64,000 nt of DNA from Hypomyces perniciosus (Eukaryota > Ascomycota > Sordariomycetes > Hypocreales > Hypocreaceae). The position numbers were made by a program, and so were the translations under genes. The DNA is taken from positions 3,162,001-3,226,000 of the forward strand of contig SPDT01000004.1 in assembly GCA_008477525.1 (NCBI GenBank), written 5' to 3'. The notes below the pieces were generated by a model. The model made no database searches and had not been told where the DNA came from. It was given only the letters and a program-made list of their open reading frames with translations. Below are positions 1 through 45,728 of this stretch, one piece after another; position 1 is the stretch's first letter; every line of letters begins with the position of its first letter.

Positions 1-1
1 A

Positions 2-2329
2 TATAGCAGTAAAAAAGTAATATTTAGGGTTTAACGCTACGTTTTAGAGTATCTGTAAAACCTAGATAAAACCTTAATAAATATTGAATTATTGGGATAT
101 ATAATTTTGGCAGTGAAATCAGTCTTTTATTAGGAATTTGCCGAGTTAGTAGGGTACTTGTATAGAATAGAAAGGCGTTAACTGGCTATAGGCAAAATTA
201 TTAAAATCAAAGAATAGGAGAACTATAAAACTATTAATAAAGTTTAATCTTTCTTTAGTCTAATTGGCTATTATAGATACTAGATTGAATATTTTATATG
301 GATTACTAAGCCTTTAATAACCTTATTAAAGAAAGACGCCCTTTAAAAGTAGACTAAGGAATAACAGCAAGCTATAAATAAATTTAAAGAGCTTATTATT
401 TCTGCCCTAATACTAGTAATATTAAATATAAATAAGGGATATAGGGAGGTGATCTTTATAGTTAATGCCAATATAGTAGGCTAGGGGGCTGTTTTAATAT
501 AGATTATAAAAAGGAAAAGACAATTAATTTAATATAAAAGTGGATGCTAGCTTTTATTGGAAATAAAGTATAACGCTATAAAGAAAGAATATAAAGCCTT
601 ACTTTAAGCCTTTAAAAGGCTATATATTTATATTTACAGGCTTTTATTTATATTAGAAATAGATATTAAGGTAGTTATAAATTAAATAAACAATAGAATT
701 AATAATATCCTTAATAGGTATATAACTTAATAGATTAGTTATATTTTTCTTTTTAACTTTACTGCTAAGTATATCCCTAAGAAAGAAAATGTTATAGCGG
801 ACGCTTTATCCTATAAATTAATAACTGCTATAAATAAGGCTAAAGTTAAGAAAGAAAGGGACTTAAAAGATTTTATAAATATATATTTAGGTATAATTTC
901 GTTTATACTGTTAAGGGAAGAATATAGTAAAAAGTTTTAATAAATTGCGCAGTACCTTTAGATAATATAAAGACTATTTAATCTTTTAACTATAGATTTC
1001 TGGCGATTTAGGAATAAAGTAAAAAGGTTTATTATAAAAGACAGGAAGTTATAGGCAAGACTAACAAAACACTGCCGCTAACCTGCATTTATCCTTAATA
1101 GCCTAACCCTAAGGAAAACAGCTGTCTAGTAATACTATACTGAAATAGGCTATAAAGGCTAAGAGGTAACTTTCCGGTTCTTAAAGGAAAGATATTAGTG
1201 GCTGTAGATATAGAATAATATATATAAGGCAGTTATATTATGCCCTTAGTATTAAAGCTTTAATCTACACCGCCTTAAAGAGCCAGCTATTATAATAGAA
1301 TTAACTAGGCCTATAAAGAAAGTCTATTTTAATACTTAATATATCCTAAATAACTATAAATATATTTACTTATTTAAAGGAAAATATAACTTTTATAGAT
1401 AAATAGAAGTAAAACTTATATTTATTTTATTATTAGCAGTAATAATACAGTTTATATTTAAATAAATATATTAATTTAATATAATAATTTAAGCTATTAT
1501 AGATAAGGGACTAGAAATGAAAAAGATACTTTTAAAAGTATTAATTAATTTAGGAGTTAAGATTATTTAGATATTAGTATATAACTTTAAAGCTAATACT
1601 GCAGTAAAGGTTAACTATTAAAGTTTAATATTAGTATTAATAAAGATAGCTAGGCTTAATAAAAAGTAGTTCTAGAATTTAGATAAAGCAATTATAGCTA
1701 ATAGATATATAGTAAAAAGCTTAATAGGGTACTCCGCGTTTTATTTATTATTTAGCTAGGAATTGATTTTTCCTTTAAAGGTAAAACTACCTATTTAGCA
1801 GTTAATTAACTAGGATAAAGTCTATATAATAGAAGATTAATTAATAGTATATATCTATATATTTAAAAGAAAAGAGGGAGATATTAAAATAGCCTAGGAA
1901 AAAGTAACTATATTTCGCTAAATATTAACTAAAAGGATAAATGCTAATAATTAATATTTACTGCAGAAAGCAGCTAAACTACTCCTCTTTAGCGACTTTA
2001 TCTTGCTTTATAATGCAAAGTGTTAAAGGGACCTTTTAAAAAATGCGAAACTGAGGATATATTAGCTAAGCCTATTTAAGATTAAGTCTTAAGCGGATAT
2101 AATAAAAGTATATAAACTAAAAACATTAAATAGGGTCCTGTTTAATAAAATTTACCTAGGCGAATATTTAAAGAAGTTTATAAAAGATAAATTTAGCTAG
2201 TAGGTAGTTAAAGATAATAAAAAGACTTTTATAGATTAGGACCTAGAGGCAGATAAAGACTTACTTAAAGATAAAGCAGTTAATAGAGTGATAATTAAGG
2301 TTATTAATAACTAAGAACTTGAAGAGCTT
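2..2329 (+). pseudogene. Pol of element A: RT end, RNase H and integrase (degraded)
   Basis: Read in the frame beginning at base 2, with stops passed over. Bases 30-230 give the end of a Gypsy RT (NLDKTLINIELLGYIILAVK). Bases 250-350 give the RT/RNase H joint (LIGYYRY, then ITKPLITLLKKDA). Bases 400-840 give RNase H, including KENVIADALS at its end. Bases about 1080-1960 give integrase: a zinc-binding region, FRFLKERY, and a degraded catalytic core. The C-terminal tail follows to about 2330. Most stops are TAG or TAA at places where relatives have Trp or Gln, as RIP would produce. The lineage resembles fungal Gypsy elements whose RT carries an F-L-D-D-I-A-type active site (known from B and C), not the chromodomain lineage of H, D and G3. 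Confidence 0.85.
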
Positions 2330-5300
2330 TACAGCGACTCTTTAGCTATTAAAGGAATGTATAGTTAATAAGATTAAATAGTCTGGCCGAGAATTAGGGT
2401 ATATGCTTATAAGTTAAAGGAAAAAGAGATGTTTTGATTAAGATACAGTCCTTTATAACACTTTAAGGTAGCTATTCCTAAAATAAACTAGATAAATTAA
2501 GACGACTACCTTTATATAAAGGATATATAGGGGAGGATAAGCGGCAATATTTTTAAAAAACAGCTGCTAAATACTATTTTTAAAGGGGAGGAGACAGCCG
2601 CTAACTAAAATCTACTGCCCTGCCTATAAAAATATAACCTAGGTATACTATAAAAAAGAGAACTATAAGATTAAATGATTTATTAACTACGTTTTTTTAT
2701 TAACTGTTTATTTTTTAGTAATAGAAGTTAAAATAAACTTTTAAACCTGCCGAATTGCCTAACTGTTTGCCTTTTCGTTTCTTTTAAAATAAAGAAAGTC
2801 TTTTATAAAATAAAGGGCTATTAAGGGATTAAAATAGTTAAAGACTATTGGCCTGATAGAAGTAGGTGTTTAATCCTTTTTAAGGAAAGTGGTAGCTATA
2901 CCTTGGTTACTTTATTAAGGCTGGTAATTAAAAAGATGTCGCTAAGTACAAGAAGAGGCCTTAGACTAAAGGCAATTTGAATAGTCCTTTTATTGGAAAC
3001 CTAGGATAAAGATACAGTTATAAAAAGGGAATAAAATGTATTCTTTGGCAGTTATAATAGTAATAGACTAAATCTAAAAGCACCTTTAGCAAAACTAAAG
3101 ATTACACTATTTATAAAATAATATAAATAAGGCTTTAATATACTTTATCTATTTAAAAAGAGTATAAAAGAATTATTTATAAATGTATAAAATTTTTACT
3201 GGGATATAGATAGGCTTAAGAAGCTTTCCTTTAATAGTGTATATAATGTTTTAAAGATATAACTAAAAGCCTTTAAAAGTATAGCGCTAAAAATATTCTT
3301 TAAAGGTATAACCTTTTATAAACGATAAAAGTAATAAAGATAATGTAAATAAAAGGGAGAAAGTAATTTTTAAATAGATTAGTAAGTTTAATTAATTAAT
3401 ATTAATACTATTTATAATTTAAATAGCGAAATACTTTTAGATTTAAATAGAGTTAGAATAAGGATATTGATTAAATAATATTTATTTATTAAAGCTTTAT
3501 TTAAGGTAAACAGCTAAGTAAAGAGATAAAGCTAGGTTTAACTTTTCTAGGATAAAGAAATCTCGCTAAAGGTTTTCTCGCCTATAATAGGTATGTTAAT
3601 AAAGTCAGCTATATTAAATAACTAATAGTGGGCTTTTCTAGCGGGATCCTTTATAATTAAATAATAGTTAAAGAAGGATTAAAAGGAAGAGAAAAAAGAG
3701 AGAGAAAAAAAAAAAAAAATTAAGTAAATTATAGAGGCTACTTTAAAGGAATAGTAATTTATATATAATAAAGAAACTACCCTATACACTAAACTATATA
3801 CCTGCACCTATAAAAAGATAAAAATAATATTATACTCTGCCTCTCTATCTTTTTTTTATTTACTTAAATATAATCCCGTTTTACTATAATTAAAATATTG
3901 CCTTTACTTTAAATTTTACTTTAAAACTATTTAATTATACTTTTCTTCTTTCTCTACTATAATATTTTATTTAAAGAAAGACCTTTACCCTTTTACTTTA
4001 TTTTTCTAGCCTATAAAAGAGAAACTGAAAACTTTACTCCTTTATTATATCAGTTAAATATCCCTAGGCTGCGCTAGGAACTTCTTTAAACTAAATAAAT
4101 AAAACTTTACTATTAATCCTATTATAAATTAATATAACTATTAACTATTATAGATCTACCTTTAACTTAACTGGTATACTATTAGCTACCTATAACTACT
4201 AGTTAAAACAATAATTACTTTAAGTTATATTTACTATAAGAATTTTATATTAATACCTGACTTTAAGGTAAATAAATAGTGCTTTTATATTAAAGATATT
4301 TATAACTTCTTATATAACCTTTCCTGTAAAAGATAGGCGTTAAACTTTACTTTAAAGGCAATGCTTTATATAATAGTAAAAGGATTGGCGACTATTAAAG
4401 TGGCCTGAGTTAAGATAATAGTATTTATAGATGCTTTTAAAGGTGCCTTTACTTTTAATTAAATAGTATTTTAAGTTTTCAGTATTCCCAATAAACTATA
4501 AAACTTCCAGTATTTTATTAAAGGATAATAAATTTTTATAGGGTTAATTTATTTCTTTAAGTATTAATATATTTATATTTTTAATAAACGCGGGTACCTT
4601 TACTATTTTGACTTTTATGGATATAACCGCGAGCGCTAAGCGCAGCAGTTCCTCGATTTATAGGCCTATATAGTTAAAAAAGCCGGATTTCCTTATTTAT
4701 TTAGCTTTTGCATAGTCCTATATATAGAATAACCTGGAGCTAATAAATATAGCTATTTAAGCCTATTCTAGATCTAGTAAATGCTTTATGGATTTATTAG
4801 CGTTAAATTAAATTGACTGGCAGGACTTTTAAGCGGGATCTTTATCTTTTTTAGCCTTAGAAAGTATAAAATAACTAATTTAAAGGGATTTGAACTTTTA
4901 CTTTAAGATTAATGCTGGTACCTATACTTTAAGTACTTGGCTAAAAGCTGTATAGATATTATTTAGGTTTTGCATTAATTTTTAATAGTAAATAAACTTA
5001 TTATTATAAATTCTAGGATAAATATTAAAAATATTTTACTTTTTTTAATTAGGTATTATTTAATTAAGTTAAATTAAAGCTAATAGGCTTTTTCTAGAAT
5101 AATTTATAGGAGGAATATAATAAAAATTAGTGGTTAGTGTTTAGCTGACCTAGGAGTACTAGTAAATAACTTTATAAAAGAGAATAGGTTAATCTATTAT
5201 AATAATAGTCTTTTTCAATAATTAATTACTTTTCTACCTTTAAATATCTAAAGAAGATTTTAATAATAGCAGCTAATACCTAGAATACAACTTCCTATAT

Positions 5301-6050
5301 TAATAATACCTGCACCTTTAGCTATATAGCTAAACCAGTTACAGTAAAGGAAAAGAAAAGTATTCTCCTTTACTTTATAAATAGTATTAATAGTAAAGAA
5401 ATAAAATAATACTACTAGCCTAGTAATATAAGCAGTATTTTTTATAAAAATAGTAGTAAAACTAGCAATTAAAAGTAAGTTAATGTATTTCTTAATAATG
5501 CTATAACCTATAAAACCCCCGCTAACTATACTAGCTATCGCTAATAATGTTAAAACTTTAAATACAGAGTTAGTTTCTTTTGAAGAAAGTAATAGCTTTT
5601 TTAATGCATTAAAAGATAACTAAAACTTAAAGGATAGAAGAGTTTTAGGAGTTACTATTAAACTTAACTAGTAAGTAATTAAAGATAATAAAAAGGCTTT
5701 TTTAAAACTAGGCGAAAGAGGGTAAGCTATAATAGTAGCCTTTACAGTAGTAATAGGGAAAACTGCACTTTAATATTTTTAAGTCTAGTGAATTATAGCC
5801 TTAAATATATACTATAGCTTAACTTTACTTAAGCTAATAAATAAATTGGCTTAAAATAATATCTAAGAATAAGTTTATATATTTATATAAATAATAAAAC
5901 AATTAATATAAAATAAGCGGATAGTAACTTAAAATACTTAGCGATAAAGAGATTAATAAAAGGGGATTATTTAATTATAATAATTCTAATAGGGAAGGAA
6001 TAATTTAATATAGATTAAATAAAGAGGAATTAGTAATATAAATAATAGTA
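2330..6050 (+). pseudogene. Long C-terminal extension or third ORF of element A, unknown function
   Basis: About 3.7 kb downstream of integrase still reads as protein in the same frame as pol. I checked phase at bases 134, 1172, 2384, 2744, 2849, 4259, 5147 and 5549; all are equal to 2 modulo 3. Nearly all interruptions are TAG/TAA of RIP type. Readable pieces include DYWPDRSRCLILFKESGSY (about 2843), a Lys/Glu-rich linker with an A-run (about 3680-3720), a short Cys/aromatic segment (about 3890-3935), CFYIKDIYNFL (about 4274) and KAGFPYLFSFCIVLYI (about 4680). No protease, RT, integrase, chromodomain or envelope-like feature is recognisable. It could be one giant Pol polyprotein tail or a separate ORF in the same frame. 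The end is uncertain (about 5990-6060). The same region, equally placed and oriented, occurs in B and C. Confidence 0.6.
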
Positions 6051-6074
6051 GTTCTGCTTTTAATTTTCTTTCCC

Positions 6075-6098
6075 TTTTTTTTTTTTTTTTTTTTTTTT
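6075..6098. repeat. T-run (24 bases) near the 3' end of element A
   Basis: An uninterrupted run of 24 T lies between the end of the extension frame and the polypurine tract. The equivalent tract is about 12 A (11807-11818) in B and about 28 A (26829-26856) in C, so this homopolymer is part of the family and varies in length. Confidence 0.9.
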
Positions 6099-6224
6099 AA
6101 TAATACTTTTTCCGCTATTTTCTTATATTATTTACATTTTCCTTAAATGTTATTATACTAGTATTAAGGGAATTAATAGGAAAAGCGTTTTATTGAGATT
6201 TATTACTTTTATTCGCAAATACTT

Positions 6225-6642
6225 ATAGGGAGGGTTTTATTAAAGGTAGCTGATATACTTAACGCATTAGCATTTTTTCTTATTAGCTTATTTAAGAAAG
6301 GTTAGCTGCTTATTTAAGCAGCTACTGGATTAAGAAAGTATAGGAGTATAAAGATATATAAATAGATTTAGTTTACTAAATAATAACCTTTTCCCCCCTT
6401 TAATATATAACTTTACTTATAAAAATATAGTTGCTAAAGTATATAAAGGTAACTGTTAGTTGCTTTTAGCTGCTGGCATTATGATTAAATAATCTGTAGT
6501 ATCTTTTTAGCCCCTATATTATTTAATCGCTGCATTATGGTTCTGTTAGGAGCGCGGTTCCTGCGCTTGATATTAGTTGTTGTGTGTGGGTGTGTGTATA
6601 TATTGTGTATGTGTTTTGGAGTGCCAATTCCCCCTCGACAAA
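6225..6642 (+). repeat. Polypurine tract and 3' LTR of element A
   Basis: The purine tract TATAGGGAGGG (6224-6234) directly abuts the LTR (about 6235-6642, 408 bp). The LTR begins TTTTATTAAAGG and ends CCCTCGACAAA. Near its 3' end it holds a TG-rich stretch (about 6580-6620) and a GC-rich hairpin at 6550-6568 (GAGCGCGG, TTC, CTGCGCTT). Four other LTRs of this family are in the window: 11249-11655, 22966-23369, 26277-26682 and 45729-46135. The G-run survives because GG steps are not RIP targets. Confidence 0.9.
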
Positions 6643-11248: not shown

Positions 11249-11666
11249 TTTGTCGAGGGGGAATTGGCACTCTAAAACACACACACAATATACACATACA
11301 CCTATACACAACGACTGGTATCGAGCGCGGGAACCGCGCTCCTGACAGAACCATGAAGCGGCGATTAAGTAATATAGGGGCTAAAAAGATACTGCGGATC
11401 ATTTAATTATAATGCCGGCAGCTAAAAGCAACTAATGGTTACCTTTATATGCCTTAATAACTATATTCTTATAGGTAAGGTTATATATTAAAAGGGGGAG
11501 AAGGTTATTATTTATTAAACTAGGTCTATCTATATATCTTTATACTCCTATACTTTTTTAATCTAGTAGCTATTTAAATACGCAGTTAACCTTTTTCAAG
11601 TAAGCTAATAAGAAAAAATGCTAGTATATTAGGTATATTAGTTACCCCCGACAAAACCCTCCCTAT
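11249..11666 (-). repeat. 3' LTR and polypurine tract of element B
   Basis: LTR at 11249-11655 (407 bp), reading on the + strand TTTGTCGAGGGGG to CCCCGACAAA. This is the best-preserved LTR of the family. It carries a CA-rich stretch (about 11275-11310) that has escaped RIP. The polypurine tract AGGGAGGG, read on the - strand, lies at 11657-11665, directly inside the LTR. Confidence 0.93.
11323..11341. other. GC-rich perfect hairpin conserved in all LTRs of the A/B/C family
   Basis: GAGCGCGG, loop GAA, CCGCGCTC: an 8-bp perfect stem with a 3-base loop. Copies lie at 6550-6568 (reverse orientation, two stem changes), 23040-23058 (one change), 26351-26369 (perfect) and 45803-45821 (perfect). 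It is the most GC-rich spot in otherwise AT-dominated DNA. CG steps are poor RIP targets, which partly explains its survival. A role in transcript ending or structure is only a guess. Confidence 0.85.
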
Positions 11667-11849
11667 AAGTATTCGCGAATAAAAGTAGCAAATCTCGATA
11701 AAACGCTTTTCCTATTAATCCCCTTAATACTAGTATAATAATATTTAAAGAAAATGTAAATAATATAGGAAAATAGTGGAAAAAGTATTATTAAAAGAAA
11801 GAAAAGAAAAAAAAAAAAGGAAAGAAAATTAAAAGTAAAACTACTGCTG

Positions 11850-14800
11850 TTTATATTACTAATTCCTCTTTATTTAATTTATATTAAATTATTCCCTTTC
11901 TATTAGAATTATTGTAATTAAATAGTCCCCTTTTATTAATCTCTTTATCGCTAGGTATTCTAAGCTGCTATCTGCTTATTTTATATCAGTTATCCTATTA
12001 TTTATATAAGTATATAAATTTATTTTTAGATATTATCTTAAGCCGATTTATTTATTAGCCTAGGTAAGGTTAAGCTGCAGTATATATTTAAGGCTATAAT
12101 TTACTAGATTTAGGAATATTAAAGTATGGTTTTCCCTATTACTGCTGTAAAGGCTACTGTTATAGCTTACCCTCTTTCGCCTAGTTTTAAAAAAGCCTTT
12201 TTATTATCTTTAATTACTCGCTAATTAAGTTTAGTAATAACTCCTAAAACTTTTTTATCCTTTAAGTTTTAGTTATCCTTTAATACATTAAAAGAGCTAC
12301 TACTTTCTTTAAAAGAAACCGACTTTGCGTCTAAGGTTTTAATATTATTAATAACAGCTAATATAATTAGCAGGGGTTTTATAGGTTATAGTATTATTAA
12401 CAAATATATTAACCTACTTTTAATTGCCAGTCCTGCTATTATTTTTATAAAAAATGCCGCTTATAGTATTAGGCTAGCAGTATTATTTTATTTTTTTATT
12501 ATTAATACTATTTATAAAGTAAAGGAGAATACTTTTCTTTTCCTTTACTGTAACTGGCTTAGCTATATAGTTAAAGGTATAGGTATTGTTAGTATAGGAA
12601 ATTATATTCTAGGTATTAGCTGCTATTATTAAAATCTTCTTTAAATACTTAAAGGTAGAAAGGTAATTAATTATCGAGAAAGATTATTATTATAATAAAT
12701 TAACTTATTCTCTTTTATAAAGTTATTTACTAATACTTTTAAGTCAGCTAGGCATTAACTATTAATCTTTATTATATTCCTTTTATAAATTATTATAAAA
12801 GGAGCCTATTAGCTTTAATTTAATTTAATTAAATAGTATTTAATTAAAAAAAGTAAGATATCTTTAATGTTTATTTTAGAATTTATAATAGTAAATTTAT
12901 TTACTATTAAAGATTAATATAAAACTTAAATAATATTTATATAGCTTTTAGCTAAATACTTAAAGTATAGGTATTAGTATTAATTTTAAAGTAGAAGTTT
13001 AAATCCTTTTAGGTTAATTGTTTTGTGCTTTTTAAGGCTAAAAGAGATAAGGATCCCGCTTAAAGGTCCTACTAGTTAACTTAATTTAATGCCAATAAGT
13101 CTATAAAGCGTTTACTGGATCTAGAATAGGCTTAAATAGCTATATTTATTAGCTTTAGGTTATTCTATATATAGGATTATGCAAAAACTAAATAAATAGG
13201 GAAATCTGGCTTTTTTAATTGTATAGGCCTATAAATTAAAAAACTGCTGCGCTTAGCGCTTATAGTTATATCTATAAGAGTTAAAGTAATAAAGGTATTT
13301 GCATTTATTAAAAATATAAATATATTACTATTTAAAGAAATAAATTAACTTTATAAGAATTTGTTATTTTTTAGTAAAGTATTAGAAGTTTTATAGTCTA
13401 TTAAAAATACTGAAAGCTTAAAGTACTATTTAATTAAAGGCAGGGGTACCTTTAAAAGTATCTATAAGTATTATTATTTTAGCTTAGGCTGCTTTAATAG
13501 TTACTAATCCTTTTACTATTATATAAAGTATTGCTTTTAAAGTAAAGTTTAATATTTATTTTTTGCGGGAAAGGTTATATAAAAAATTATAGATATCTTT
13601 AATATAAAAACACTATTTATTTACCTTAAAGTTAAGTATTAGTATAAGATTTTTATAGTAAATATAGCTTAAAGTAATTATTATTTTAACTAGTAATTAT
13701 AGGTAGTTAGTAATATATTAGTTAAATTAAAGGTAGATTTATAATAGTTAATGGCTATATTATCTTGTAATAAGATTAATAGTAAGGTTTTATTTATTTA
13801 GCTTAAAGAAGTTTTTAGCGCGGCTTAGGAATATTTAGCTAATATAGTAAAAGAGTAGAGTTTTTAGTTTATTTTTTATAGGCTAGAAAAATAAAGTAAA
13901 AGGGTAAGGGTTTTTCTTTAAATAGAATATTATAGTAAAGAAGGAAAAAGGGTATAATTAAATGGTTTTAAAGCAGGATTTAAAGTAAAGGCAATATTTT
14001 AATTATAGTAAAATAGGATTATATTTAGGTAAATAAAAAAAAGAAAGAGAGGTAGAGTATAATATTGTTTTTATTTTTTTATAGGTGTAGGTGTATAGTT
14101 TAATATATAGGGTGGTTTCTTTATTGTATATAAATTACTATTCTTTTAAAGTAGCCTTTATAACTCGTTTATTTTTTTATTTCTTTTTCTCTCTTTTTCT
14201 TTTCTTTTCCTTTTAATCTTTCTTTAACTATTATTTAATTATAGAGGATTTTACTAGAAAAGCCTATTATTAATTACCTAATATAGCCGACTTTATTAAT
14301 ATATTTATTATAGGTAAGAAAACCTTTAGCGAGATTTTTTTATTTTAGAAAGGTTAAACCTAGCTTTATCTCTTTATTTAGCTGTCTACTTTAAATAAAG
14401 CTTTAGTAAATAGGTATTATTTAATCGATATCTTTATTTTAATTTTATTTAAATTTAAAAATATTTTACTGTTTAGATTATAGGTAATATTAATATTAAT
14501 CGGTTAAATTTACTAATCTATTTAAAGATTACTTTCTCTTTTTTATTTATATTATCTTTATTGCTTTTATTATTTCTAAAAGGTTATACCTTTAAAGAAT
14601 ATTTTTAGCGCTATACTTTTAAAGGCTTTTAGTTATATCTTTAAAATATTATACGCGCTATTAAAGGAAAGCTTTTTAAGCCTATTTATATCCTGGCAGA
14701 GATTTTGTATATTTATAGGTAGTTCTTTTATACTCTTTTTAAGCAGATAGAGCATATTAAGGCTTTATTTATATTATTTTATAGATAGCGTAATCCTTAA

Positions 14801-15568
14801 TTCTGCTAAAGGTACTTTTAGATTTAGTCTATTATTATTATAACTGCTAAGGAATATATTTTATTCCCTTTTTACAACTATATTTTTATTTTAGGTTTTT
14901 AATAAAGGGATTATTTAAATTGCCTTTAGTTTAAAGCCTTTTTTTATACTTGGCGATATCTTTTTAGTTACTAGCTTTAATAAAGTAATTAAAGTATAGC
15001 TATTATTTTCTTTAAAAAAGATTAAATATTTACTTTTATTAAGCTAATAGTCTTTAGCTATTTTAATCTTTTAATAGCTTTTTATTTTATAAAAGACTTT
15101 CTTTATTTTAAAGGAAATAAAAAGGCAGAGAGTTAAGCGATTTAGCAGGTTTAAAAGTTTATTTCAGCTTCTGTTATTAAGAAATAAGCGGCTAATAGGG
15201 AAATATAGTTAATAAATTATTTAATCTTGCAGTTCTTTTCTTTATAGTATACTTAGGTTATATTTTTTATAGGCGGGGCAGTAGACTTTAATTAATAGCT
15301 ATCTCCTCCCCTTTAAAAACAGTACTTAGTAGCTGTTTTTTAAGAATATTGCCGCTTATCTTCCCTTATATATCCTTTATATAGAGGTAATTATCTTAAT
15401 TTATCTGGTTTATTCTAGGAATAGCTACCTTAAAGTATTATAAGGGACTGTATTTTAATTAAAATATCTTTTTTTCTTTTAACTTATAAGTATATACTTT
15501 AATTCTCAGCTAAACTATTTAATTTTATTAACTATATATTCTTTTAGTAGTTAAAGAGTCGCTATAAA
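11850..15568 (-). pseudogene. C-terminal extension or third ORF of element B, unknown function
   Basis: Reverse-strand counterpart of the region at 2330-6050 in A, with the same position after integrase, orientation and length. Landmarks match on the reverse complement, for example the Tyr-Ile-Lys-Asp-Ile-Tyr stretch near 13600 and the Pro-Tyr-Phe region near 13190. Many RIP-type stops. No domain recognised. Confidence 0.6.
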
Positions 15569-18500
15569 GCTTTTTAAGTTTTTAGTTATTAATAACTTTC
15601 ATTGTCGCTTTATTAACTGCTTTATCTTTAAGTAAATCTTTATTTACCTTTAAATTTTAATTTATAAAAGTTTCTTTATTATTTTTAGCTATTTACCAGC
15701 TAAATTTATCTTTTATAAACTTCTTTAAATATTTGCCTAGGTAAATGTTATTAAACAGGACCCCATTTAACGTTTTTAGTTTATATACTTTTATTATATC
15801 CGCTTAAGACTTAATTTTAAATAGGCCTAGCTAATATATTTTTAGTTTTGCATCTCTTAAAAGGTCCCTTTAGCGCTTTATATTATAAAGTAAAATAAGG
15901 TTATTAGGGAGGAGTAGTTTAGCTGCTTTCTACAGTAAATATTAATTATTAATATTTATCCTTTTAGTTAATATTTAGTAAAATACAGTTACTTTTTCCT
16001 AGGCTATTTTAATATTTCCCTTTTTTCTTTTAAGTATATAAATATACGCTATTAATTAATCTTTTATTATATAAAATTTATTTTAGTTAATTAGCTGCCA
16101 GATAGGTAGTTTTACCTTTAAGGGAAAAATCAGTTTTTAGTTAAATAATAGGTAAAACGCGGAATACCCTATTAAGCTTTTTACTATATATCTATTAGCT
16201 ATAATCGCTTTATTTAAGTTCTAGAACTACTTTTTATTAAGCTTAACTATTTTTACTAGTATTAATATTAAGCTTTAATAGCTAACCTTTACTATAGCAT
16301 TAGCTTTAAAGTTATATACTAATATCCAAATAATCTTAACTCTTAGATTAATTAATACCTTTAAAAGTATCTTTTTTATTTCTAGTCCTTTATTTATAAT
16401 AGCCTAAACTATTATATTAAATTAATATATTTATTTAAACATAAACTTTATTATTGCTGCTAATAATAAAGTAAATATAGGTTTTACTTTTACTTATCTA
16501 TAAAAGTTATATCTTCTTTTAAATAGGTAAATATATCTACAGTTACTTAAAATATATTAAGTATTAAAATAGACCTTCTTTATAGGCTTAGTTAGTTCTG
16601 TTATAATAGCTAGCTCTTTAAGGCAGTATAAATTAAAGCCTTAATACTAGGGGTATAATATAACTGCTTTATATATATTGTTTTATATTTGCGGCCACTA
16701 GTATTTTTCTTTTAGGAATTAGAAAGTTACCTTTTAGCCTTTATAGCCTATTTTAGTATAATATTACTAGATAGCTGTTTTCCTTAAAGTTAGGCTATTA
16801 AAGATAAATACAGGTTAACGGCAGTATTTTATTAATTTTACCTATAATTTCCTGTCTTTTATAATAAACCTTTTTGCTTTATTCCTAAATTGTTAGAAGT
16901 CTATAGCTAAAAGATTAAATAATCTCTATATTGTTTAAAGGTATTGCGCAATTTATTAAAACCCTTTACTATACTTTTCCCTTAACAGTATAAATAAAAT
17001 TATATCTAAATGTATATCTATAAAATCTTTTAAGTCCCTTTTTTCCTTAGCTTTAGCTTTATTGATAGCAGTTACTGGTTTATAGGATAAAGTATTTACT
17101 ATAATATTTTCTTTTTTAAAGATATACTTAACAGTAAAGTTAAAAAAAAGGATATAATTAATCTATTAGGTTATATACCTGTTAAAGATATTATTAATTT
17201 TATTATTTATTTAATTAATAACTACTTTAGCGTCTGTTTTTAATATAAATAAAAGCCTGTAGATATAAGTATATAGCTTTTTAAAGGCTTAAAATAAAGC
17301 TTTATATTTTTTCTTTATAGTATTATACTTTATTTCTAATAAAAGCCAGTATTTACTTTTATATTAAATTAGTTATCTTTTCCCTTTTATAATCTATATT
17401 AAAATAGCCCTTTAGCCTATTATATTAGCATTAACTATAAAGATTACCTCCCTATATCCTTTATTTATATTTAATATTACTAGTATTAAGGTAAAAGTAA
17501 TAAGCTTTTTAAGTTTATTTATAGTTTACTATTATTCTTTAATCTACTTTTAAGGGGCGTTTTTCTTTAATAGGGTTATTAAAGGCTTAATAATCTACGC
17601 GAAATATTTAATTTAATATTTATAATAGTTAACTAAACTAAAGAAAAATTAAACTTTATTAATAGTTTTATAGTTTTTTTATTTTTTGATTTTAATAATT
17701 TTACTTATAGCTAATTAGCGCTTTTTTATTTTATATAGGTACTTTATTAATTTAATAGACTTTTAATAAAAGATTGATTTTACTATTAAAATTATATATC
17801 CTAATAGTTTAATATTTATTAGGGTTTTATTTAGGTTTTGCAGATACTTTAAGATATAGTGTTAAACTTTAGGTATTACTTTTTTACTGCTATATATAGA
17901 CTTTAAACCTTATACTGCAATATTATTTAAAAATAGTCAGTAAACTATAAGTATAAGATTAAATAGTATTTAAAGAATAATATATTAAAATTGTATTACT
18001 AAGTTTATAGCGCCTATTAAAAGAGTGAAGTATTTTAAAAGGCTAATAGGGCTTATAAATATAGTTATATCTCAGCTTTTTTTATTAAAAGGGATTTAAT
18101 TATAGCCTAAGAAAAAGTCTAGTAATAATAGTATTATATAACCTATAAAGTCTTTACTGAATTAGTCTGCGCTTAAGGGAATAAAGGTATCTTTAATAGT
18201 TACTTTATTTATCTGTATAATAGAGTTAATAAAGCGAAAGCCGCTGCCTTTTTTCTGCATTAAGAAAAACAGGTTTCTATATAGCCTATAGCCTTCCTTT
18301 AAAAGACCTTTTTTAATATATATTTATAGCAAGTTAATTACTTTCTTCTCTATACCTTTAAGGATTAAGATATTACTGCTTTGCCAAGCGTTATACTCTA
18401 CTATATAAATAGTTTATAGTAGGGTAATTTTATGGTTTAGCTTTTTATATTCCGTGAAATCCTAACAAAATGCTATTTCCCTGTTTTTTAAGATCTATAT

Positions 18501-18700
18501 TAAGATTGCGGTTTTTTATATTATCAGTTTCCTTTCTACTGTCTTTAAGATCGCTGCCAGGCGGTCTAGTGTAAGTCTTAACTTAGCTTTAATTAGTAAG
18601 AATTTTAATGTAATATATTCAGCGAATAGGGTATTAGGGTTTAAATTATCCTTAACTTTATCCTACTTTTTTTATTTTTAATAAAGACTCCTAGCAGGAA
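15569..18700 (-). pseudogene. Pol of element B: RT, RNase H and integrase (degraded)
   Basis: On the - strand, RT enters near 18330 with a sequence reading GSGFRFINSIIQINKVTIKD and continues through L-L-D-F-F-L-G-Y-N. The active site reads F-L-N-N-I-A-V at about 17913-17933, where fungal relatives have F-L-D-D-I-A. RNase H follows at about 17640-17050 and integrase at about 16840-15940. The RT is of the fungal Gypsy type that lacks a chromodomain. Most stops are TAG/TAA. Confidence 0.82.
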
Positions 18701-21700
18701 TAAAACTATTAGACAAAGTATTATCTACTAGATGGATTTTTATGCCTTTCTTTTTATATATAGTATTAATTCTAATCCGCTTACACTTCCGCGCTCTTTT
18801 TTAAAACCTTTTCTTTTATTCCTCTACTCCTTTAAATTCCTCTACTGCTTTTTTTATTACTTTTATTTAATCTTTTAATTTATTAGCTAATAGTAGCTAA
18901 ATTAAATCCTCCTTAGTTTACTTTAATAGTCTACATAAAACCTCTTCCTTAAAAGTAAAGTAAAGGTTTTCCAAGCTTTCTTCCGCTTTATTAACTTTAT
19001 ACTTAAATATAAAGTTAATATTTATTTTAGCTTTAGGTTATATAATGCCTCTGTTTTATATTCTTAATAGATAGCTCTAGCAGCTAAGGTAATAACTTAA
19101 ATATTCTTTATTCTGCATTTTATATATAAATCCCTGTCTTTTAGTATATAATTAAATATTAACTGCGCAGCTTAAATAAATAGTATTTTAAAGATAAAGG
19201 GCATTAAGATATTATTAAATATAATATAAAATCTAGCTGCTATTTAAGTATTGCCTATAAATACCTAAATAATAGTTTCGCTATATATATTTACTTGCCT
19301 ATTATTAAATGCAGTATTAACTGCTTTATAAAAGTATATTATTATACTATATTTTACAGCTAACTAATAAAAGATAATATTTCCCTTTAACTTTAAATCT
19401 ATAAATACTTTAATAAATATACTGTTAGGCTCTTTTAAATATATTTATATTTATAATAGGTTTTGTAAATAGTAGAGGATCTTTCCTATTTAAACTAGAT
19501 AAATCCAGGTTATAGACTTCTATAACCGATTTGCCTTATAGTTAATGGCTATATATAGTTACTTTAGCTTATAAAAGTATATTTTTAAAGGTAATGATAG
19601 GTTTAGGTCTTTAAGATTAAATAACTCTTTATTTAATAATCCCTTTACTAGTAAAGGTTATAAAGTTATAGTTTTAAAAGGTTAATCCTATAGCAACTAA
19701 ACGATTTATATAGTTAATTCTATATATACAGCTATTGCATTTAGTTTTTTTTATTAGTTGTTCCTTTAAAGGATATTACTTAATATAAAGTATATTTAAA
19801 GATAGTTAAGTTAGTTTTCTTATAAAACTGTATTTCAGTAATCTTTTATAATTTTACAATTAAGTTTACTTTTAAAGTATTTGCGAGTTTTAGAATAATA
19901 TTTAAAAAAATGCTAGTTTTAAGTTTAATTGCATTGTCTAGAATTGCTGCTTAGATTATTATTTTAGCTTGCTTTGCTTTTAGTAATTCCTCTTTATTTT
20001 CAGTGCCTTTAATTTTACTTTCTTTATTGCATTACAGTCTAAATAGTATAGCCTTTAAGGTTATAGGTATAAGGTCTAAATACAGTTACTTTTTCTTAAT
20101 TAGTTTTTTTATTTAAGGCAATAATAGCTCCTCTTTAACTTACTTATCCGCTTTATTAATTATATAAATATACTTTTATCCCCTGCTAGTTATAAAGTTA
20201 GCGAAAAGAGTTTAATTAAATAATTCCTTAGTTAAACTGGCCTGGTTATATTTATCTAAAGGTTTTTTTAAAGAGGCTATCTTAACTAGGTTTATAGAAA
20301 AATTCTTAACCCCTTTTACTTATATATTATCCCTTTTTTTAATAATTATTTAATCTTTGCCTATAAAGTATATAATATTTATTATTAATCCCTTTACAGG
20401 AATTATATTTAATCTTTATAGTGCCTAGATTTTAAATATCTCTTTATATACTACTTTATTATAGATAATATTAAAGAGTTTAGCTTTATAGGTAGTCGGT
20501 TCCTAGTTAAAAAAGCTAAGTTTTATCTTTTTTATAAATAATAAACTTAAAGAAACTTTATTTTAAACTCTAAATAATTCTACTTAAAGCACTAGTATTT
20601 TTTATATATAAATCTTAATAATTATAACTAATATAATAAATTGAGGTGGGATTAAAGTTTTCTATAAGCTTACCTAAACTATTTTTACTGCTAGGTTATA
20701 TATTATAAACTTATAGCCTTTATTATAAATTAACTTAGCGCAGTTTTAAGGAAAATAGTCTTTATCTTTACAATACTAATAATATTTAATATTAATAACT
20801 GCCTTTAAATAGTTAATAAAGAAGGTATTCAATATATTATTATATAAAAAGTTTATTATATTAATATTATTAATAGCGATTATTAAAGTAAAAGGTCCTT
20901 GTTTAGGTTTATTACTACTAATAGTAATATAATGATATTCTCTTTCTTTTAGGTTAATTGCTGTTTCCTTTTATTAAAAGAGTTAAATTGTTAGTGTATT
21001 GAATTTTTTAGATAAAGCGTTTATTTAATCTTTAAGCTGTAAAGTTGTAATTAATTCTATAGGTTTAAGCTATTCTTCTTTTCACTTTCTCGTCTTTAAG
21101 CTTAACTCTAACTCAAATAAATCTAATAAGTCTTTAATCTTAAATAGTCCTTTATTAAACTCTTAAAAATAGGCTCTTTAAATATTAAACTCTGCTAATA
21201 TTTTATTATAGAAAAGTATCTAGACTTTAATATACACTAAATCCTCGAAATTGTTAATTTCTTTAATCCCTTTAAAAGCTATTATTAGCTAAAGCAGCTC
21301 TAATAGTATTGCTTTTGCGATATTATAGGAATATAGTATCGCTATCCTTTAATGTTTTTATTAAGCTTTTAACAGAAATATTAGTATTAAAGCAATTAAT
21401 CTATTATAAACTGTATTCCTATAGGTTTATAGCAATAAAGGTTTTAAAGTTATACTATATATAATTCTAATTAATCCTTATCCTATTGCTTATAATATTA
21501 TAAACGTTTTTTCTTTATTTTATTTTAACTAATACTGTCCTTAATAAAAATCTAAACTATCTTCTATTCCTTTACTTTTATAAATAGTTCTAGGTACCTC
21601 CTTTAATCCCTAGTTAAAATTCCTTAATCTTCTAGTTCTTACTTATAGTTTTTTAAGAACTAAGATATATTCTTACTATTAAATTTACTTATAAGGTTAA

Positions 21701-22930
21701 TCCCTATTAGTAGCTTTATACCTTAGATATTTTTAAAGGTTTAAGTAAAGAAAAGGAACTTTTAGGATAGTGATTTTCCTTTTTCTGCTAAAAAGCTTAA
21801 TCTTTCTTTAAATTCTATTATAATAGATATAGATATTATTAATATTAGGTTAAGTATATGATTAAATAATTCCTTATATTAAAGGGTTAAAGATAAAGTT
21901 GTATTTAATATTTTAGTAAAAGGAGGTTATTAATTTAATTTAAACTCTTTTACTTTAAGTTAAAGTAAGTTATTAGAGTCTCAATTAAATAGTTCTTTAG
22001 TAAAAGAATACCTTTTCTCCTGCAGATTAAAGTTATCCGATTTAGATAACTGGCCTTTAAAAGAATATTCTTCTCTCAGTTAAAAAAAGGATGCATTCCT
22101 TTAATAATAAAGCTATAGTAATATATTCTATTAATATAAGGAGTTTTTTTATAAAGAAAAAGGGTCGCGTTTATTTATCTAGGATAAAGAAATCAGCTAG
22201 TCTTTTAAGGATAATTTCCTGCATTAATACTAGTTATAAGATATTAAATTATTATTGTTTTTATATCTTTTTTAAATATCTTTAATATAAATAAAGACAG
22301 CCTATATACTAAAGATTATAAAAGCAGTAAAAATAGTATTTTTATTTAAAGTTAAAAAAAACCTAGCTAAAAATATTAATAAAACTAAAATAAAGTCTTT
22401 ATATTAAAAGATTAAATAATTAATATATCCGTTATCGGCCCCCTATAGCTATTCTACCTATTAACCTACCTGCTAGTAAATAAAATAAAGGTTATAATAG
22501 TATATTAATAGTTTAAAGGGGCTTAAATTATATAATATTAACTGTTTTACCTATATATTTGCTTTTACTATAGCGACTAGTCTTTCAGTAATTTTCTTTA
22601 AAATCTTAGCTTTTAATTAGCAGGTATTATTAACTAGTAGTTTCTTAAAGTTCCGCTCTTTTATTATATTTTAGCGCGTTATACCTAAGTTAATTAATCC
22701 TGATATCTTTTCGGAAATTATAATTAAATAACCTGCATTTTTAAAATTAAATATTATATTAATTTATATTAAATAGTTATAGAAAGGGTTTTAGGCTATT
22801 TCCTTTAGCTAATTATTTTATATTTATATAAAGATTAAGTAAAGCTAGCCTATAATTCTATTAGTAGTTAAGTAAAGGTAGGTTTTAGTGGCAGTGTAAA
22901 AGTGCCCTTAGTAATTACTTCTTAGGATAT
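18701..22930 (-). pseudogene. 5' coding region of element B (gag and protease expected), not resolved
   Basis: About 4.2 kb between the primer-binding region and RT. On the - strand it gives protein-like stretches with RIP-type stops, for example KERNFKKLLVNNTC from about 22662 and KILKKITERLVAIVKANI from about 22600. Gag and protease must lie here by position, but I could not find a convincing zinc knuckle or an Asp-Ser/Thr-Gly protease site. The matching region in C is 41435-45660. Confidence 0.5.
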
Positions 22931-22935
22931 AATCC

Positions 22936-22963
22936 CTGAGATTTCCCCCTATCTCAGTCACCA
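22936..22963 (-). promoter_or_regulatory. Primer-binding site of element B overlapped by a hairpin
   Basis: On the - strand, two bases after the 5' LTR end, the sequence reads TGGTGACTGAGAT (22951-22963). This begins with TGG, as expected for pairing with a tRNA 3' CCA end. On the + strand, CTGAGAT (22936-22942) and ATCTCAG (22951-22957) form a 7-bp stem with an 8-base loop that covers half of the primer site. The C copy has the same structure with CG pairs. Confidence 0.65.
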
Positions 22964-22965
22964 GT

Positions 22966-23369
22966 TTTATTAAAGGGGAATTAGCACTTTAAAATACATA
23001 TATAATATATATATACACCTATATATAATAACTGGTATTAAGCGCGGGAACCGCGCTCCTAACAGAACCATAAAGCAGCGATTAAATAATATAAGGGCTA
23101 AAAAAATACTGTAAATTATTTAATTATAATGCCGGCAGCTAAAAGTAACTAACAGTTACCTTTATATACTTTAGCGACTATATTCTTATAAGTGGGGTTA
23201 TATATTAAAGGGGGGAGAAGGTTATTATTTATTAAACTAAGTTTATCTATATATCTTTATACTCCTATACTTTCCTAATCCAGTAGCTGCTTAAATAAGC
23301 AGCCAACCTTTCTCAGGTAAACTAAGAAAAAATGCTGGTGCGTTAGGCATATTAGTTACCCTTAACAAA
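22966..23369 (-). repeat. 5' LTR of element B
   Basis: 404 bp, + strand TTTATTAAAGGGG to CCTTAACAAA; more mutated than its partner at 11249-11655. In particular the CA-rich stretch has become TA-rich here (about 22990-23030). The hairpin is kept at 23040-23058. The right flank ATACC is the resumed H1 sequence. Confidence 0.92.
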
Positions 23370-24199
23370 ATACCTTAAAGTATATATAAACTACTCTTAA
23401 AATAATTAAAAAGACCTCCTTTTAATAATGCAGCTAGCTTTAAATAACCGTAAATATATAGCTATTTAAATAAACCCTTTTTTCCTTAAATATAGCTACT
23501 ATATAAAACCCCTGCAGCTATATATAAAAGAAAATAAAGCTATTAAATTAAAAGACTAGGAAAAAAAAGCTATAAAAAAAGTAATTAAAAGACTAGAAAA
23601 AGTAACTGCCTTTGCCTAAATAATATTTACTACTATATAATAATATTATAAAGACTCTATAAACTAGCAGCAAAGCCCCTTTAAAAGATATAAAATAAAA
23701 GATAAAGTTTAGCTATACTTTAATAACTATAATACTCCCTAGCCTTTTAAAAAGCTTAATATTTTATATTATAAATATATAGTAATAAATGTTATTAGCC
23801 TTTATATAGTAGAACTAGGTATATTAACTAGTATATACCTGCAATTTTATATTAACCTGCTAAAAAAAGCAGCTAATAACCCTGTTTTAGGCTAGATTTT
23901 AAATAACCTTTAACTACTACTAATATAAGTAAATATTAAAGATAAATAAAAAGTTAAAGAGGTCCTTTATATAAAGATTAAGCAGTAAAGTTACAGCTCT
24001 TTCCGTAAAGTATTAATATAGTAGAAAGGATATATAAAGCTAACCTAAAAATTAATATATATACTTAAAGATATAATAGCCTTCGATAACTATATATCTA
24101 AATATAGCCTAATTAAATTTAATAACAGGCTATTTAATAGCTATATACTAATAAAGTAATAACGCCTAAAAAAAAAGCTACTGTAAAAAGGGGGGGTAA
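23370..24199 (+). pseudogene. H1 pol, 3' end: rest of integrase, chromodomain, polypurine tract
   Basis: Continuation of H1 after B. It reads as the end of the integrase core and its C-terminal region (A-L-N-N-R-K-Y near 23441, KRYKIKDKVWLYFNNYNTP near 23687). A chromodomain remnant follows at about 23990-24090 (FRKVLI, two stops, KGYIKLT). H2 has FREVLI, KGYIKLTWEP at the same place. Chromodomains in fungal Gypsy integrases are known to bind methylated histone H3K9. The polypurine tract AAAAAGGGGGGG (24186-24196) precedes the LTR. Confidence 0.82.
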
Positions 24200-26276: not shown

Positions 26277-26693
26277 TTTATCGAGGGGGAATTGGCACTC
26301 CAAAACACACACATAATACACACATACACCCATATACAACGACTGGTATCGAGCGCGGGAACCGCGCTCCTAACAGAACCATAAAGCAGCGATTAAATAA
26401 TATAAAGGCTAAAAAGATACTGCAGATCATTTAATTATAATGCCGGCAGCTAAAAGTAATTAATAGTTACCTTTATACGCCTCAGCAACTATATTCTTAT
26501 AAGTAGGGTTATATATTAAAAGGGGAAAAAGGTTATTATTTATTAAACTAGGTTTATTTATATATCTTTATACTTTTATACTTTTTTAATCTAGTAACTG
26601 CTTAAATAAATAGTTAACCTTTTTTAAGTAAACTAATAAAAAAAATACTAATATATTAGGTATATTAATTACCTTTAACAAAACCCTCTCTAT
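26277..26693 (-). repeat. 3' LTR and polypurine tract of element C
   Basis: LTR 26277-26682 (406 bp), + strand TTTATCGAGGGGG to CTTTAACAAA. The CA-rich stretch (about 26303-26340) and the perfect hairpin (26351-26369) are intact. The inner flank ACCCTCTC is a polypurine tract on the sense strand, with one change from B (GAGAGGG against AGGGAGGG). Confidence 0.92.
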
Positions 26694-26887
26694 AAGTATT
26701 TGCAAATGAAAGTAGTAAATCTTAACGAAATACTTTTCCTATTAATCCCTTTAATACTAGTATAATAACATTTAAGGAAAATATAAATAATATAAGAAAA
26801 TAGTAGAAAAAGTATTATTAAAAGAAAGAAAAAAAAAAAAAAAAAAAAAAAAAAAAGGAAAGAAAATTAAAAGCAAAACTACTGCTA

Positions 26888-29800: not shown

Positions 29801-30606
29801 CCTATTTATATTATTTTATAGACAGCATAATCCTTAGTTTTGCCAGGGGTGCCTTTAAACTTAGTCTATTACTATTATAACTGTTAAGGAATATATTTTA
29901 TTCCCTTTTTACGACTGCATCTCTATCCTAGGTTTCCAATAAAGGGATTATTTAAATTGCCTTTAATTTAAGGCCTTTTTTTATACTTGGCGATATCTTT
30001 CTAGTTACTAGCTTTAATAAAGTAATTAAAGTATAGCTACTACTTTCTTTAAAAAGGATTAGATATTTACTTTTATTAGGCTAGTAGTCTTTAGTTATTT
30101 TAATCCTTTAATAGCCTTTTATTTTATAAAAGACTTTCTTTATTTTAAAGGAAATAAAAAGGCAGAAAGTTAAGCGATTTAATAGGTTTAAAAGTTTATT
30201 TTAACTTTTATTATTAAAAAATAAGCAGTTAAGAGGGAAATATAGTTAATAAATTATTTAATTTTGCAGTTCTTTTCTTTATAATATATTTAGGTTATAT
30301 TTTTTATAGGCGGGGCATTAAACTTTAATTAATAGCTATCTCCTCCCCTTTAAAAATAATACCTAGCAGTTATTTTTTAAAAATATTACTGCTTATCCTC
30401 CCTTATATATCCTCTATATAAAGGTAATTGTCCTGACTTATTTAGTTTATTTTAGGAATAGTTACTTTAAAGTATTATAAAGGATTGCATTTTAGTTAGA
30501 ATATCTCTTTTTCCTTTAATTTATAAGTATATACTTTAGTTTTTAGCTAGACTATTTAATTTTATTAACTATATATTCCTTTAATAATTAAAGAGTTACT
30601 GTAAAG
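26888..30606 (-). pseudogene. C-terminal extension or third ORF of element C, unknown function
   Basis: Counterpart of 2330-6050 (A) and 11850-15568 (B). Offset to B is constant (about +15,038), so there are few length changes. On the reverse strand near 28640 it reads Phe-Lys-Val-Asn-Lys, stop, Tyr-Phe-Tyr-Ile-Lys-Asp-Ile-Tyr-Asn-Phe-Leu, as in A with one substitution. The three copies together would allow a majority consensus. No known domain seen. Confidence 0.6.
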
Positions 30607-33265: not shown

Positions 33266-33652
33266 TGTCACGACCCGACTATTATAAGAACGTGACATGG
33301 TATGTACCCGGAGGAACCTTGGATAGATGAACCAATTAGCATTAAATCACTCGGGTTACTATAAACTATAAAGTAATCCCAGTAAATTAATAGAAGGACT
33401 TACTATAGATCGTTAGGAAAACAAGTATAATCTAAGGTGATTTAAGATTATTCCCTTTATATATATATAACTGGCTTATTACTCATTTAATATAGTTACT
33501 TAAATAGTTGTTAATTAATTGCATTTACTAAAACCGCCTATTCTATAGAATTATAACTATATTACCCTATTTAGTATTTATCTTTAACCTCTTTATTAAT
33601 ATAAACCTATAAACTTTAGTTTATCCCTTAAAGATTAACCCGGATTATTATA
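33266..33652 (+). repeat. 5' LTR of element D
   Basis: 387 bp, starting TGTCACGACCCGAC. Within its first 32 bases there is a perfect 7-bp inverted repeat, TGTCACG (33266-33272) and CGTGACA (33291-33297). The left part is almost free of RIP and the right part is heavily changed (ends CCCGGATTATTATA against CCCGGATCGTTACA in the other LTR). No TGG-type primer site is apparent just after it. Confidence 0.94.
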
Positions 33653-33779
33653 TATTAATAACTTTTATTTAAAAGGCCACTAAGAATCCTAAGTAATATC
33701 GCAAGTATATCCACTGCAGTATCCTCTTCCAATAATCCTAATACTCTACCCTCCGCTCCACCTCTTTATTAAAGACAGG

Positions 33780-40584: not shown

Positions 40585-40971
40585 TATTATAACCTAACCA
40601 TTATAAAAACATAATATAGTATATATCTAGAGGAACCTTAGATAGATAAACTAATTAATATTAGATTACTCGGGTTACTATAAACTATAAAGTGATTCTA
40701 GTAAGCTAATAGAAGGATTTACTATAGATTATTAGGAAAATAAATATAATCTAAGGTAATTTAAGATTATTCCCTTTATATATATATAACTGGCTTGTTA
40801 TTTATTTAGTATAGTTACTTAAACAGTCGTTAACCAATTATATTCACTAGAACCGCCTGTTCTATAGAATCGTGACTATATTACCCTACTTAGTATTTAT
40901 CCCTGACCTCTCTGTTAATATAAACCCATAAACCTCGGTTTATCCCTTGAGAATCAACCCGGATCGTTACA
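40585..40971 (+). repeat. 3' LTR of element D
   Basis: 387 bp. Its left part is heavily changed (TATTATAACCTAACC against TGTCACGACCCGACT) and its right part is nearly intact (ends CAACCCGGATCGTTACA). This is the mirror image of the 5' LTR. The flank GTTAA begins at 40972. Confidence 0.94.
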
Positions 40972-40976
40972 GTTAA

Positions 40977-45726: not shown

Positions 45727-45728
45727 GT

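What the first reader, a model, noticed from the sequence alone, without database searches (positions are those of the whole stretch)
2330..6050. A roughly 1,200-codon extension downstream of integrase in the A/B/C Gypsy family, in frame with pol, with no recognised domain
Gypsy Pol normally ends at integrase or a chromodomain. Here protein-like sequence continues for about 3.7 kb in the same frame (phase checked at eight points between 134 and 5549), broken mainly by RIP-type TAG/TAA. The same region is in B (11850-15568) and C (26888-30606) with the same place, orientation and length. It contains a Lys/Glu linker and a Cys/aromatic segment but no domain I can name. It may be a captured host gene, a new accessory protein, or the tail of a giant polyprotein. 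This is the strongest candidate in the window for something undescribed.
Basis: partly seen in the sequence, partly recalled or inferred. Interest (0 to 1): 0.75.

Follow-up and report, generated by a model that had tools for sequence, protein, structure and literature searches.

The report
Gypsy element with orphan 3' region
A mutation-riddled 12-kb jumping gene of a fungus carries a 3.5-kb stretch after its normal genes; it is not one giant protein extension, but it seems to hold the remains of one, perhaps two, small extra genes of unknown function.

Summary
Copies A, B and C in the window belong to a Ty3/Gypsy element. A is complete: 12.1 kb, 408-bp LTRs, a polypurine tract before the 3' LTR, and a short target duplication. 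The genome holds on the order of 100 matches to it; all 40 copies profiled were heavily RIP-mutated. The 3.5-kb region between pol and the 3' LTR is real and belongs to the element. Nothing in the searches made resembled it.

The claim of about 1,200 codons in frame with pol fails. From pol to the tail, 36 of 40 measured copies differ in length from A by a number not divisible by three; 30 have exactly one extra base, in an A-run near 2630. Pol's register meets stops fixed in all copies by 2635. A looks in frame because it lacks that base.

Three-base periodicity is found at 5100-5760 (strong; 1 of 4000 shuffles reach it) and 2702-3300 (weak; 70 of 4000), not in the 1.8 kb between. The two islands keep A's relative register in 12 of 38 copies. 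The "Lys/Glu linker" is a purine tract.

Best reading: a dead Gypsy family with one, perhaps two, sense additional ORFs between pol and the 3' LTR. This is a known kind of arrangement; the protein is an orphan in these searches.

The parts
1..6642 (+). Copy A, the part inside the window; the whole copy runs from C16:3156502 (L047:502) to window 6642, 12,141 bp
   Evidence: LTR matches L047:502-909 and 6235-6642, 84.8% identical; CTATT on both outer sides
353..694 (+). RNase H part of pol
   Evidence: Pfam RT_RNaseH_2 E 6e-7 and RT_RNaseH E 7.7e-5 in the frame starting at 2, stops as X
1106..1252 (+). Integrase zinc-binding part, weak
   Evidence: Pfam Integrase_H2C2 E 0.066, below its cut-off
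2450..2703 (+). End of pol, not placed exactly
   Evidence: Codon score and periodicity fade from about 2400-2450; stops in pol's register at 2528, 2606, 2627 (each 39 of 39), then 2635 (41 of 41) and 2701 (39 of 40)
2627..2632 (+). A-run where most copies have one base more than A
   Evidence: Insertions at 2627 (6 of 40) and 2632 (31 of 40); net +1 in 30 of 40 measured copies
2702..3299 (+). Island 1: weak coding signal, about 200 codons
   Evidence: Periodicity 2.58, reached by 70 of 4000 shuffles; 4 unrecoverable stop columns in 200 codons
3300..5099 (.). Middle region without codon periodicity
   Evidence: Periodicity 0.97, reached by 1467 of 4000 shuffles; single windows rise to 1.78 at 4200-4559; indels 52-71 per kb at 3300-4220
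3681..3719 (+).
   Evidence: Sequence; found in 40 of 42 copies, 23-51 nt
5100..5759 (+). Island 2: strong coding signal, about 220 codons, sense orientation favoured
   Evidence: Periodicity 5.07, reached by 1 of 4000 shuffles; 3 unrecoverable stop columns in 220 codons; first-position G at 5400-5760
6064..6098 (+). Pyrimidine tract of variable length
   Evidence: Sequence; found in 37 of 42 copies, 18-47 nt
6227..6234 (+). Polypurine tract AGGGAGGG directly before the 3' LTR
   Evidence: Sequence and LTR start
6235..6642 (+). 3' LTR of A, 408 bp
   Evidence: copies lose similarity from 6643
11249..23370 (-). Copy B, about 12.1 kb, with both LTRs; the finding's region is about 11845-15566
26277..46136 (-). 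Copy C, interrupted by a nested insertion of about 7.7 kb; the finding's region is about 26882-30602

Best explanation
The region is the 3' part of a RIP-killed Ty3/Gypsy retrotransposon of 12.1 kb. Pol ends somewhere between about 2450 and 2701. About 3.5 kb follow, up to the polypurine tract and 3' LTR. This stretch held at least one sense additional ORF (island 2, about 220 codons, near the LTR) and perhaps a second (island 1), with 1.8 kb between them that was probably not translated. Shown: the element's anatomy, the loss of pol's frame, two islands of codon periodicity, no common register between them. Inferred: island 2 was translated as a separate accessory protein, from the genomic RNA or a shorter RNA, and helped the element's RNA or particles on their way, as CERV does for the Gypsy-type element Cer1 of C. 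elegans. The function is a guess from position and from its presence in most copies.
For: Complete element with the region between pol and polypurine tract. Ty3 reverse transcriptase-RNase H profile match, E 6.5e-15 and 9.7e-15. Region in 32 of 37 further copies. Periodicity 5.07 at 5100-5760 (1 of 4000 shuffles), 2.58 at 2702-3300 (70 of 4000), pol control 3.47 (21 of 4000), middle 0.97. Unrecoverable stops 3 of 220 codons in island 2 and 4 of 200 in island 1, pol 5 of 320. Sense favoured by pol-trained codon score, first-position G 0.26 against second-position 0.10, and because antisense hydropathy of island 2 (0.93) equals that of pol's antisense (1.00). Additional ORFs in this place are a known kind (PMC7264820, passages); CERV seen as title and start of abstract only (PMC10309623).
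Against: No copy read has an intact ORF. The antisense frame of island 2 has fewer stops than the sense frame (1.2 against 4.3 per 100 codons at 5400-5760). Shared transversions favour one phase over the whole tail (20 of 34), including the middle (15 of 29), which would speak for coding throughout; the same test fails in pol (9 of 23). Island 1 is marginal after about ten segments were looked at. No homologue was found, so nothing outside the family confirms that island 2 is a gene.
Confidence: 0.58

Rival explanations
1. Island 2 is part of an antisense gene read leftward from about 5760, like brtn of Boty in Botrytis.
For: Fewest stops of all six frames at 5400-5760 (1.2 per 100 codons); the only stop-to-stop ORF of 80 aa or more in the first 9 kb, 119 aa at 5260-5619 on the - strand; antisense additional ORFs in this place are known in a fungus (passages).
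Against: This frame shares third positions with the sense frame and looks the same in pol, where it is a shadow: hydropathy 1.00 there, 0.93 here. Codon score negative. Searches of old copies score it about like the sense frame. No Pfam match at its cut-off was seen (best DUF3938 E 0.012 in 4 of 12 members) and no PDB match; this frame was not searched in the large protein collection.
Confidence: 0.2
2. The tail was never coding; the islands are chance periodicity or leftovers of old genes that were already dead when the family spread.
For: No homologues; the middle 1.8 kb and 5760-6060 show no periodicity; long non-coding 3' regions occur in LTR elements (recalled).
Against: Island 2 is stronger than pol itself and reached by 1 of 4000 shuffles; few unrecoverable stops; few indels, 6.1 per kb against 21.9 in pol and 46.7 in the LTR.
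Confidence: 0.12
3. The tail is a captured host gene or another element inserted between pol and the LTR and carried along.
For: No relation to gag or pol was seen; purine and pyrimidine tracts stand at 3681-3719 and 6064-6098 and composition changes at about 3720.
Against: No Pfam or PDB domain, no protein relative, and no similarity to the rest of the window at protein level. The purine tract is not a poly(A) tail: its longest A run is 10 or less in 36 of 40 copies. Diverged hits fetched (3) were old copies of the same element. A single-copy host gene could have been missed.
Confidence: 0.08
4. One reading: pol continues as one giant polyprotein of about 1,200 more codons.
For: In A's coordinates the pol frame has the fewest unrecoverable stops of the three forward frames over 2700-5760: 33 against 74 and 63 in 1020 codons. 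Shared transversions, 20 of 34 at its third positions.
Against: Out of frame in 36 of 40 copies; fixed stops at the end of pol; no periodicity at 3300-5100; register between islands kept in 12 of 38.
Confidence: 0.02

Closest known systems
Boty (BcGypsy1) of Botrytis cinerea with the additional gene brtn (passages of PMC7264820, PMC4227169, PMC8365987)
   Same: Fungal Gypsy element with an extra gene between pol and the 3' LTR; RIP-damaged copies
   Different: brtn is antisense, here sense is favoured; Boty pol has a chromodomain, none was detected here; no sequence comparison with brtn could be made
Plant Gypsy elements with additional ORFs between pol and 3' LTR, such as Grande, RIRE2, Retand (passages of PMC7264820)
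   Same: Place of the extra ORF and its presence in most copies of a family; no similarity to known proteins
   Different: Those named are antisense and intact in some copies; host group differs
Cer1 of C. elegans with CERV (title and start of abstract in a listing, PMC10309623)
   Same: LTR retrotransposon with an extra protein besides GAG and POL
   Different: No sequence comparison made; function here untested
Ty3 of budding yeast
   Same: RT-RNase H profile match, E 6.5e-15 and 9.7e-15
   Different: Ty3 has no such 3' region (recalled)

Membership tests
Ty3/Gypsy LTR retrotransposon | RT-RNase H related to Ty3 | tested here: met
   PDB 4ol8 and 7q5b, E 6.5e-15 and 9.7e-15; Pfam RNase H
Ty3/Gypsy LTR retrotransposon | Integrase after RNase H | tested here: inconclusive
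   Only a weak Integrase_H2C2 match, E 0.066, in that order; the core was judged by eye
Ty3/Gypsy LTR retrotransposon | Two LTRs, short target duplication, polypurine tract | tested here: met
   LTRs of 408 bp, CTATT on both sides of A (GTATT/GTATA at B), AGGGAGGG before the 3' LTR
Ty3/Gypsy LTR retrotransposon | Primer binding site for a tRNA | tested here: inconclusive
   ACTGGTGACTGAG after the 5' LTR in B, mutated in A; not compared with a tRNA
Chromodomain-bearing Gypsy | Chromodomain at the end of pol | tested here: inconclusive
   No Pfam match, but Pfam also missed RT in these copies
Gypsy with additional ORF between pol and 3' LTR | Region between pol and LTR present in most copies | tested here: met
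   32 of 37 further copies
Gypsy with additional ORF between pol and 3' LTR | Open reading frame there | tested here: inconclusive
   Coding-like periodicity at 5100-5760, but every copy read has stops
Boty-like with brtn | Antisense orientation of the extra gene | tested here: inconclusive
   Sense favoured by three measures, antisense has fewer stops
Boty-like with brtn | Similarity to BRTN protein | not testable with these tools
   No BRTN sequence at hand; protein searches found nothing
Env-carrying (retrovirus-like) Gypsy | Signal peptide, transmembrane anchor | not tested
   Only mean hydropathy was computed: sense reading of island 2, 0.40; pol 0.16

The most novel reading that the evidence does not exclude
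An orphan accessory gene family of fungal Gypsy elements: the two islands are parts of one protein joined by splicing across the 1.8-kb middle, and the conserved internal purine tract there serves as a second primer for plus-strand DNA synthesis.
Probability: 0.07. Interest if true: 0.6.

Novelty: new member of a known kind. Interest (0 to 1): 0.27.

Why it matters
Additional ORFs between pol and the 3' LTR have no agreed function, and few fungal examples were met in my reading. This family, with on the order of 100 matches in one genome, would add one, probably in sense orientation and without known relatives. It also shows how a phase check on one RIP-damaged copy can suggest a giant polyprotein that the other copies contradict.

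Tried and rejected
Led nowhere: Pfam on six frames of A 2001-6300 (best OHA, E 0.083). Profiles or members of both islands, of the antisense reading of island 2 and of 4505-5770 against PDB and Pfam: PDB gave only weak matches for island 1 (best E 0.033). Two searches of the large protein collection with the tail, none at E 0.1 among the 7,998 and 8,000 candidates scored. Protein comparison of the tail in four copies with the rest of the window and two upstream loci. AlphaFold on 4505-5770 (mean pLDDT 27.5), uninformative because an RNase H control from the same family also fails (30.3). Rfam, no match in the window at gathering scores. An rRNA search to place the host did not complete.

Considered and rejected: a poly(A) tail at 3704-3719 as a sign of a captured mRNA; a sister family in the genome (three diverged hits fetched were old copies); Gnomoniopsis castaneae as host (assemblies of 39-40 Mb in 10-21 pieces). 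The host species is not known; Leptosphaeria, Botrytis and others were recalled guesses, none confirmed.

Tests without a working control: the transversion phase test does not succeed in pol; transitions outside the main RIP context gave no signal. The codon score was trained on pol, so only its values in the tail count. One search used a wrong frame (+0) by my slip and served as a third frame for comparison.

Full report
What is there. The window is C16:3162001-3226000 of a genome of 44.0 Mb in 23 contigs; no species name is given, and a fungus is inferred from the RIP pattern. Copy A is on the + strand, B and C on the - strand. The 5' LTR of A lies outside the window at L047:502-909 and the 3' LTR at 6235-6642, so A is 12,141 bp long; its LTRs are 84.8% identical. 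CTATT stands on both outer sides, and AGGGAGGG stands directly before the 3' LTR. After the 5' LTR of B comes ACTGGTGACTGAG, a possible primer binding site, mutated in A and not compared with a tRNA. B spans about 11249-23370, C about 26277-46136 with a nested insertion. The region of the finding is thus inside a complete LTR element, between pol and the polypurine tract.

Copies and their state. One DNA query had 94 candidates, 40 of them scored; a protein query of island 2 gave 115 matches, some of them pieces of one copy. I aligned 40 copies to A's coordinates (A itself, B, C and 37 loci), later 42. Of the 37 loci, five (L016, L030, L034, L040, L045) were truncated or interrupted; they were masked outside their match. 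In the 40 copies GC was 0.175-0.301, and TA was 3.3 to 9.9 times as frequent as CA plus TG, the mark of strong RIP. No copy read was free of stops in the pol frame or the tail frame.

What kind of element. A profile of the RT-to-integrase stretch from A, B and C matches Ty3-type RT-RNase H in the PDB, E 6.5e-15 and 9.7e-15. Pfam finds RNase H in A and B but not RT, and the integrase zinc finger only below its cut-off. In the protein collection that profile gave six distant Gypsy proteins at E 1e-5 or better among 7,996 candidates. The island profiles do not match those six beyond chance (best E 0.0097 in a set of six, 4.1 bits).

Is the tail in frame with pol? Not in the family. In an A-run most copies have one base more than A: 6 of 40 at 2627 and 31 of 40 at 2632. 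Measured from 2550 to 2790, 30 of 40 copies differ from A by exactly +1 and 36 of 40 by a number not divisible by three; four keep A's register; one more copy could not be measured. Stops in pol's register are fixed at 2528, 2606 and 2627 (39 of 39 each); in the family's register they follow at 2635 (41 of 41) and 2701 (39 of 40). Fixed TAA also occurs at three places well inside pol (1919, 2024, 2090), so RIP alone can fix a stop, and which of these is pol's own stop cannot be told. Codon score and periodicity fade from about 2400-2450. Pol therefore ends between about 2450 and 2701.

Is the tail one long coding stretch? Three-base periodicity, averaged over gap-free copies and set against 4000 block shuffles: pol 1502-2459, 3.47 (21 reach it); 2702-3300, 2.58 (70); 5100-5760, 5.07 (1); 3300-5100, 0.97 (1467). 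At 5760-6060 it is 0.57 and in the LTR 0.75; the highest single 360-base window lying wholly in the middle is 1.78 at 4200-4559. The copies are related, so the mean is one observation, not forty, and about ten segments were looked at; island 2 stands this, island 1 barely. Stop columns in at least half of the copies and without CAA, CAG, TGG or CGA in any copy, over 2700-5760: 33 of 1020 codons in the pol-strand frame, 74 and 63 in the other forward frames; 4 of 200 in island 1, 3 of 220 in island 2, 26 of 600 between; pol 5 of 320. The register between the islands equals A's in 12 of 38 measured copies and is off by one in 9 and by two in 17; three could not be measured. No fixed frame joins them.

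Results against this reading. Shared transversions (in two or more copies) fall on one phase in 20 of 34 cases over 2702-5760 (P 0.002), 15 of 29 in the middle. That would favour coding throughout, but the same test in pol gives 9 of 23 (P 0.35), so it has no working control. In the middle the pol-strand frame has somewhat fewer unrecoverable stops than the other forward frames (26 against 39 and 32). Some coding in the middle stays possible.

Strand. The sense frame and one antisense frame share their third positions. The antisense frame has fewer stops (1.2 against 4.3 per 100 codons at 5400-5760) and gives the only stop-to-stop ORF of 80 aa or more overlapping the first 9 kb (119 aa). Three measures favour sense: the codon score trained on pol (at 5100-5400 it is negative for both strands), G at first positions (0.26 against 0.10 at second positions at 5400-5760; pol 0.19 and 0.09), and hydropathy, since pol's antisense is as hydrophobic (1.00) as that of island 2 (0.93). 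In searches of the genome's copies sense and antisense score about alike, and in many diverged copies both score above a third frame.

The Lys/Glu linker is a pure purine tract: 39 nt in A, most often 33-35 nt, found in 40 of 42 copies. A pyrimidine tract stands at 6064-6098 in A and was found in 37 of 42. 3720-4220 is C-rich and G-poor in all three phases, unlike the coding stretches.

Homology. Nothing was found at E 0.1 for island 2 (7,998 candidates scored) or for 4505-5770 (8,000); Pfam and PDB gave nothing convincing for either island. This is weak evidence of novelty: the candidate step needs shared five-letter words, which RIP destroys, candidates are limited by length, and Pfam missed RT in the same copies. 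Island 1 and the antisense reading were not searched in the large collection. AlphaFold failed for 4505-5770 (27.5) and as badly for RNase H (30.3).

Comparison with the known. A review read in passages says that additional ORFs are most often between pol and the 3' LTR, in sense or antisense, in most copies of a family and mostly of unknown function, and that Boty of Botrytis has an antisense one (PMC7264820; brtn also in passages of PMC4227169, and PMC8365987). Place and constancy here match that kind. A survey of fungal LTR elements, read in four passages, mentions additional domains and complex elements (PMC3248453). In the listings of six library searches and the passages read I saw no description of this element; the listed papers were not read through, the Leptosphaeria genome paper is not held, and the host is unknown, so this is no proof that it is undescribed.

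Verdict. A real, conserved region that belongs to the element. The giant in-frame extension is an accident of copy A. What remains is a probable small sense accessory ORF near the 3' LTR, and a weaker second one, in a dead Gypsy family.

Noticed in passing
33273-40891: Nested insertion of about 7.7 kb in copy C, bounded by 300-nt direct repeats 84% alike, probably another LTR element.
   Followed up: no
6639-10512 and 57221-60510: A second repeat family, copies about 50 kb apart; it begins right at the end of A, so A may have inserted into it.
   Followed up: no
5260-5619: Stop-free 119-aa antisense ORF in spite of heavy RIP, hydrophobic; the antisense of pol is similarly hydrophobic.
   Followed up: partly
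3681-3719 and 6064-6098: Purine and pyrimidine tracts about 2.35 kb apart, seen in 40 and 37 of 42 copies; role unknown.
   Followed up: partly
3750-4199: Strongly negative GC skew (-0.58 and -0.49), opposite to the rest of the element's + strand.
   Followed up: partly
L052, L053, L054: Older copies with main matches about 74-79% identical to A, pointing to more than one round of spread or mutation.
   Followed up: partly
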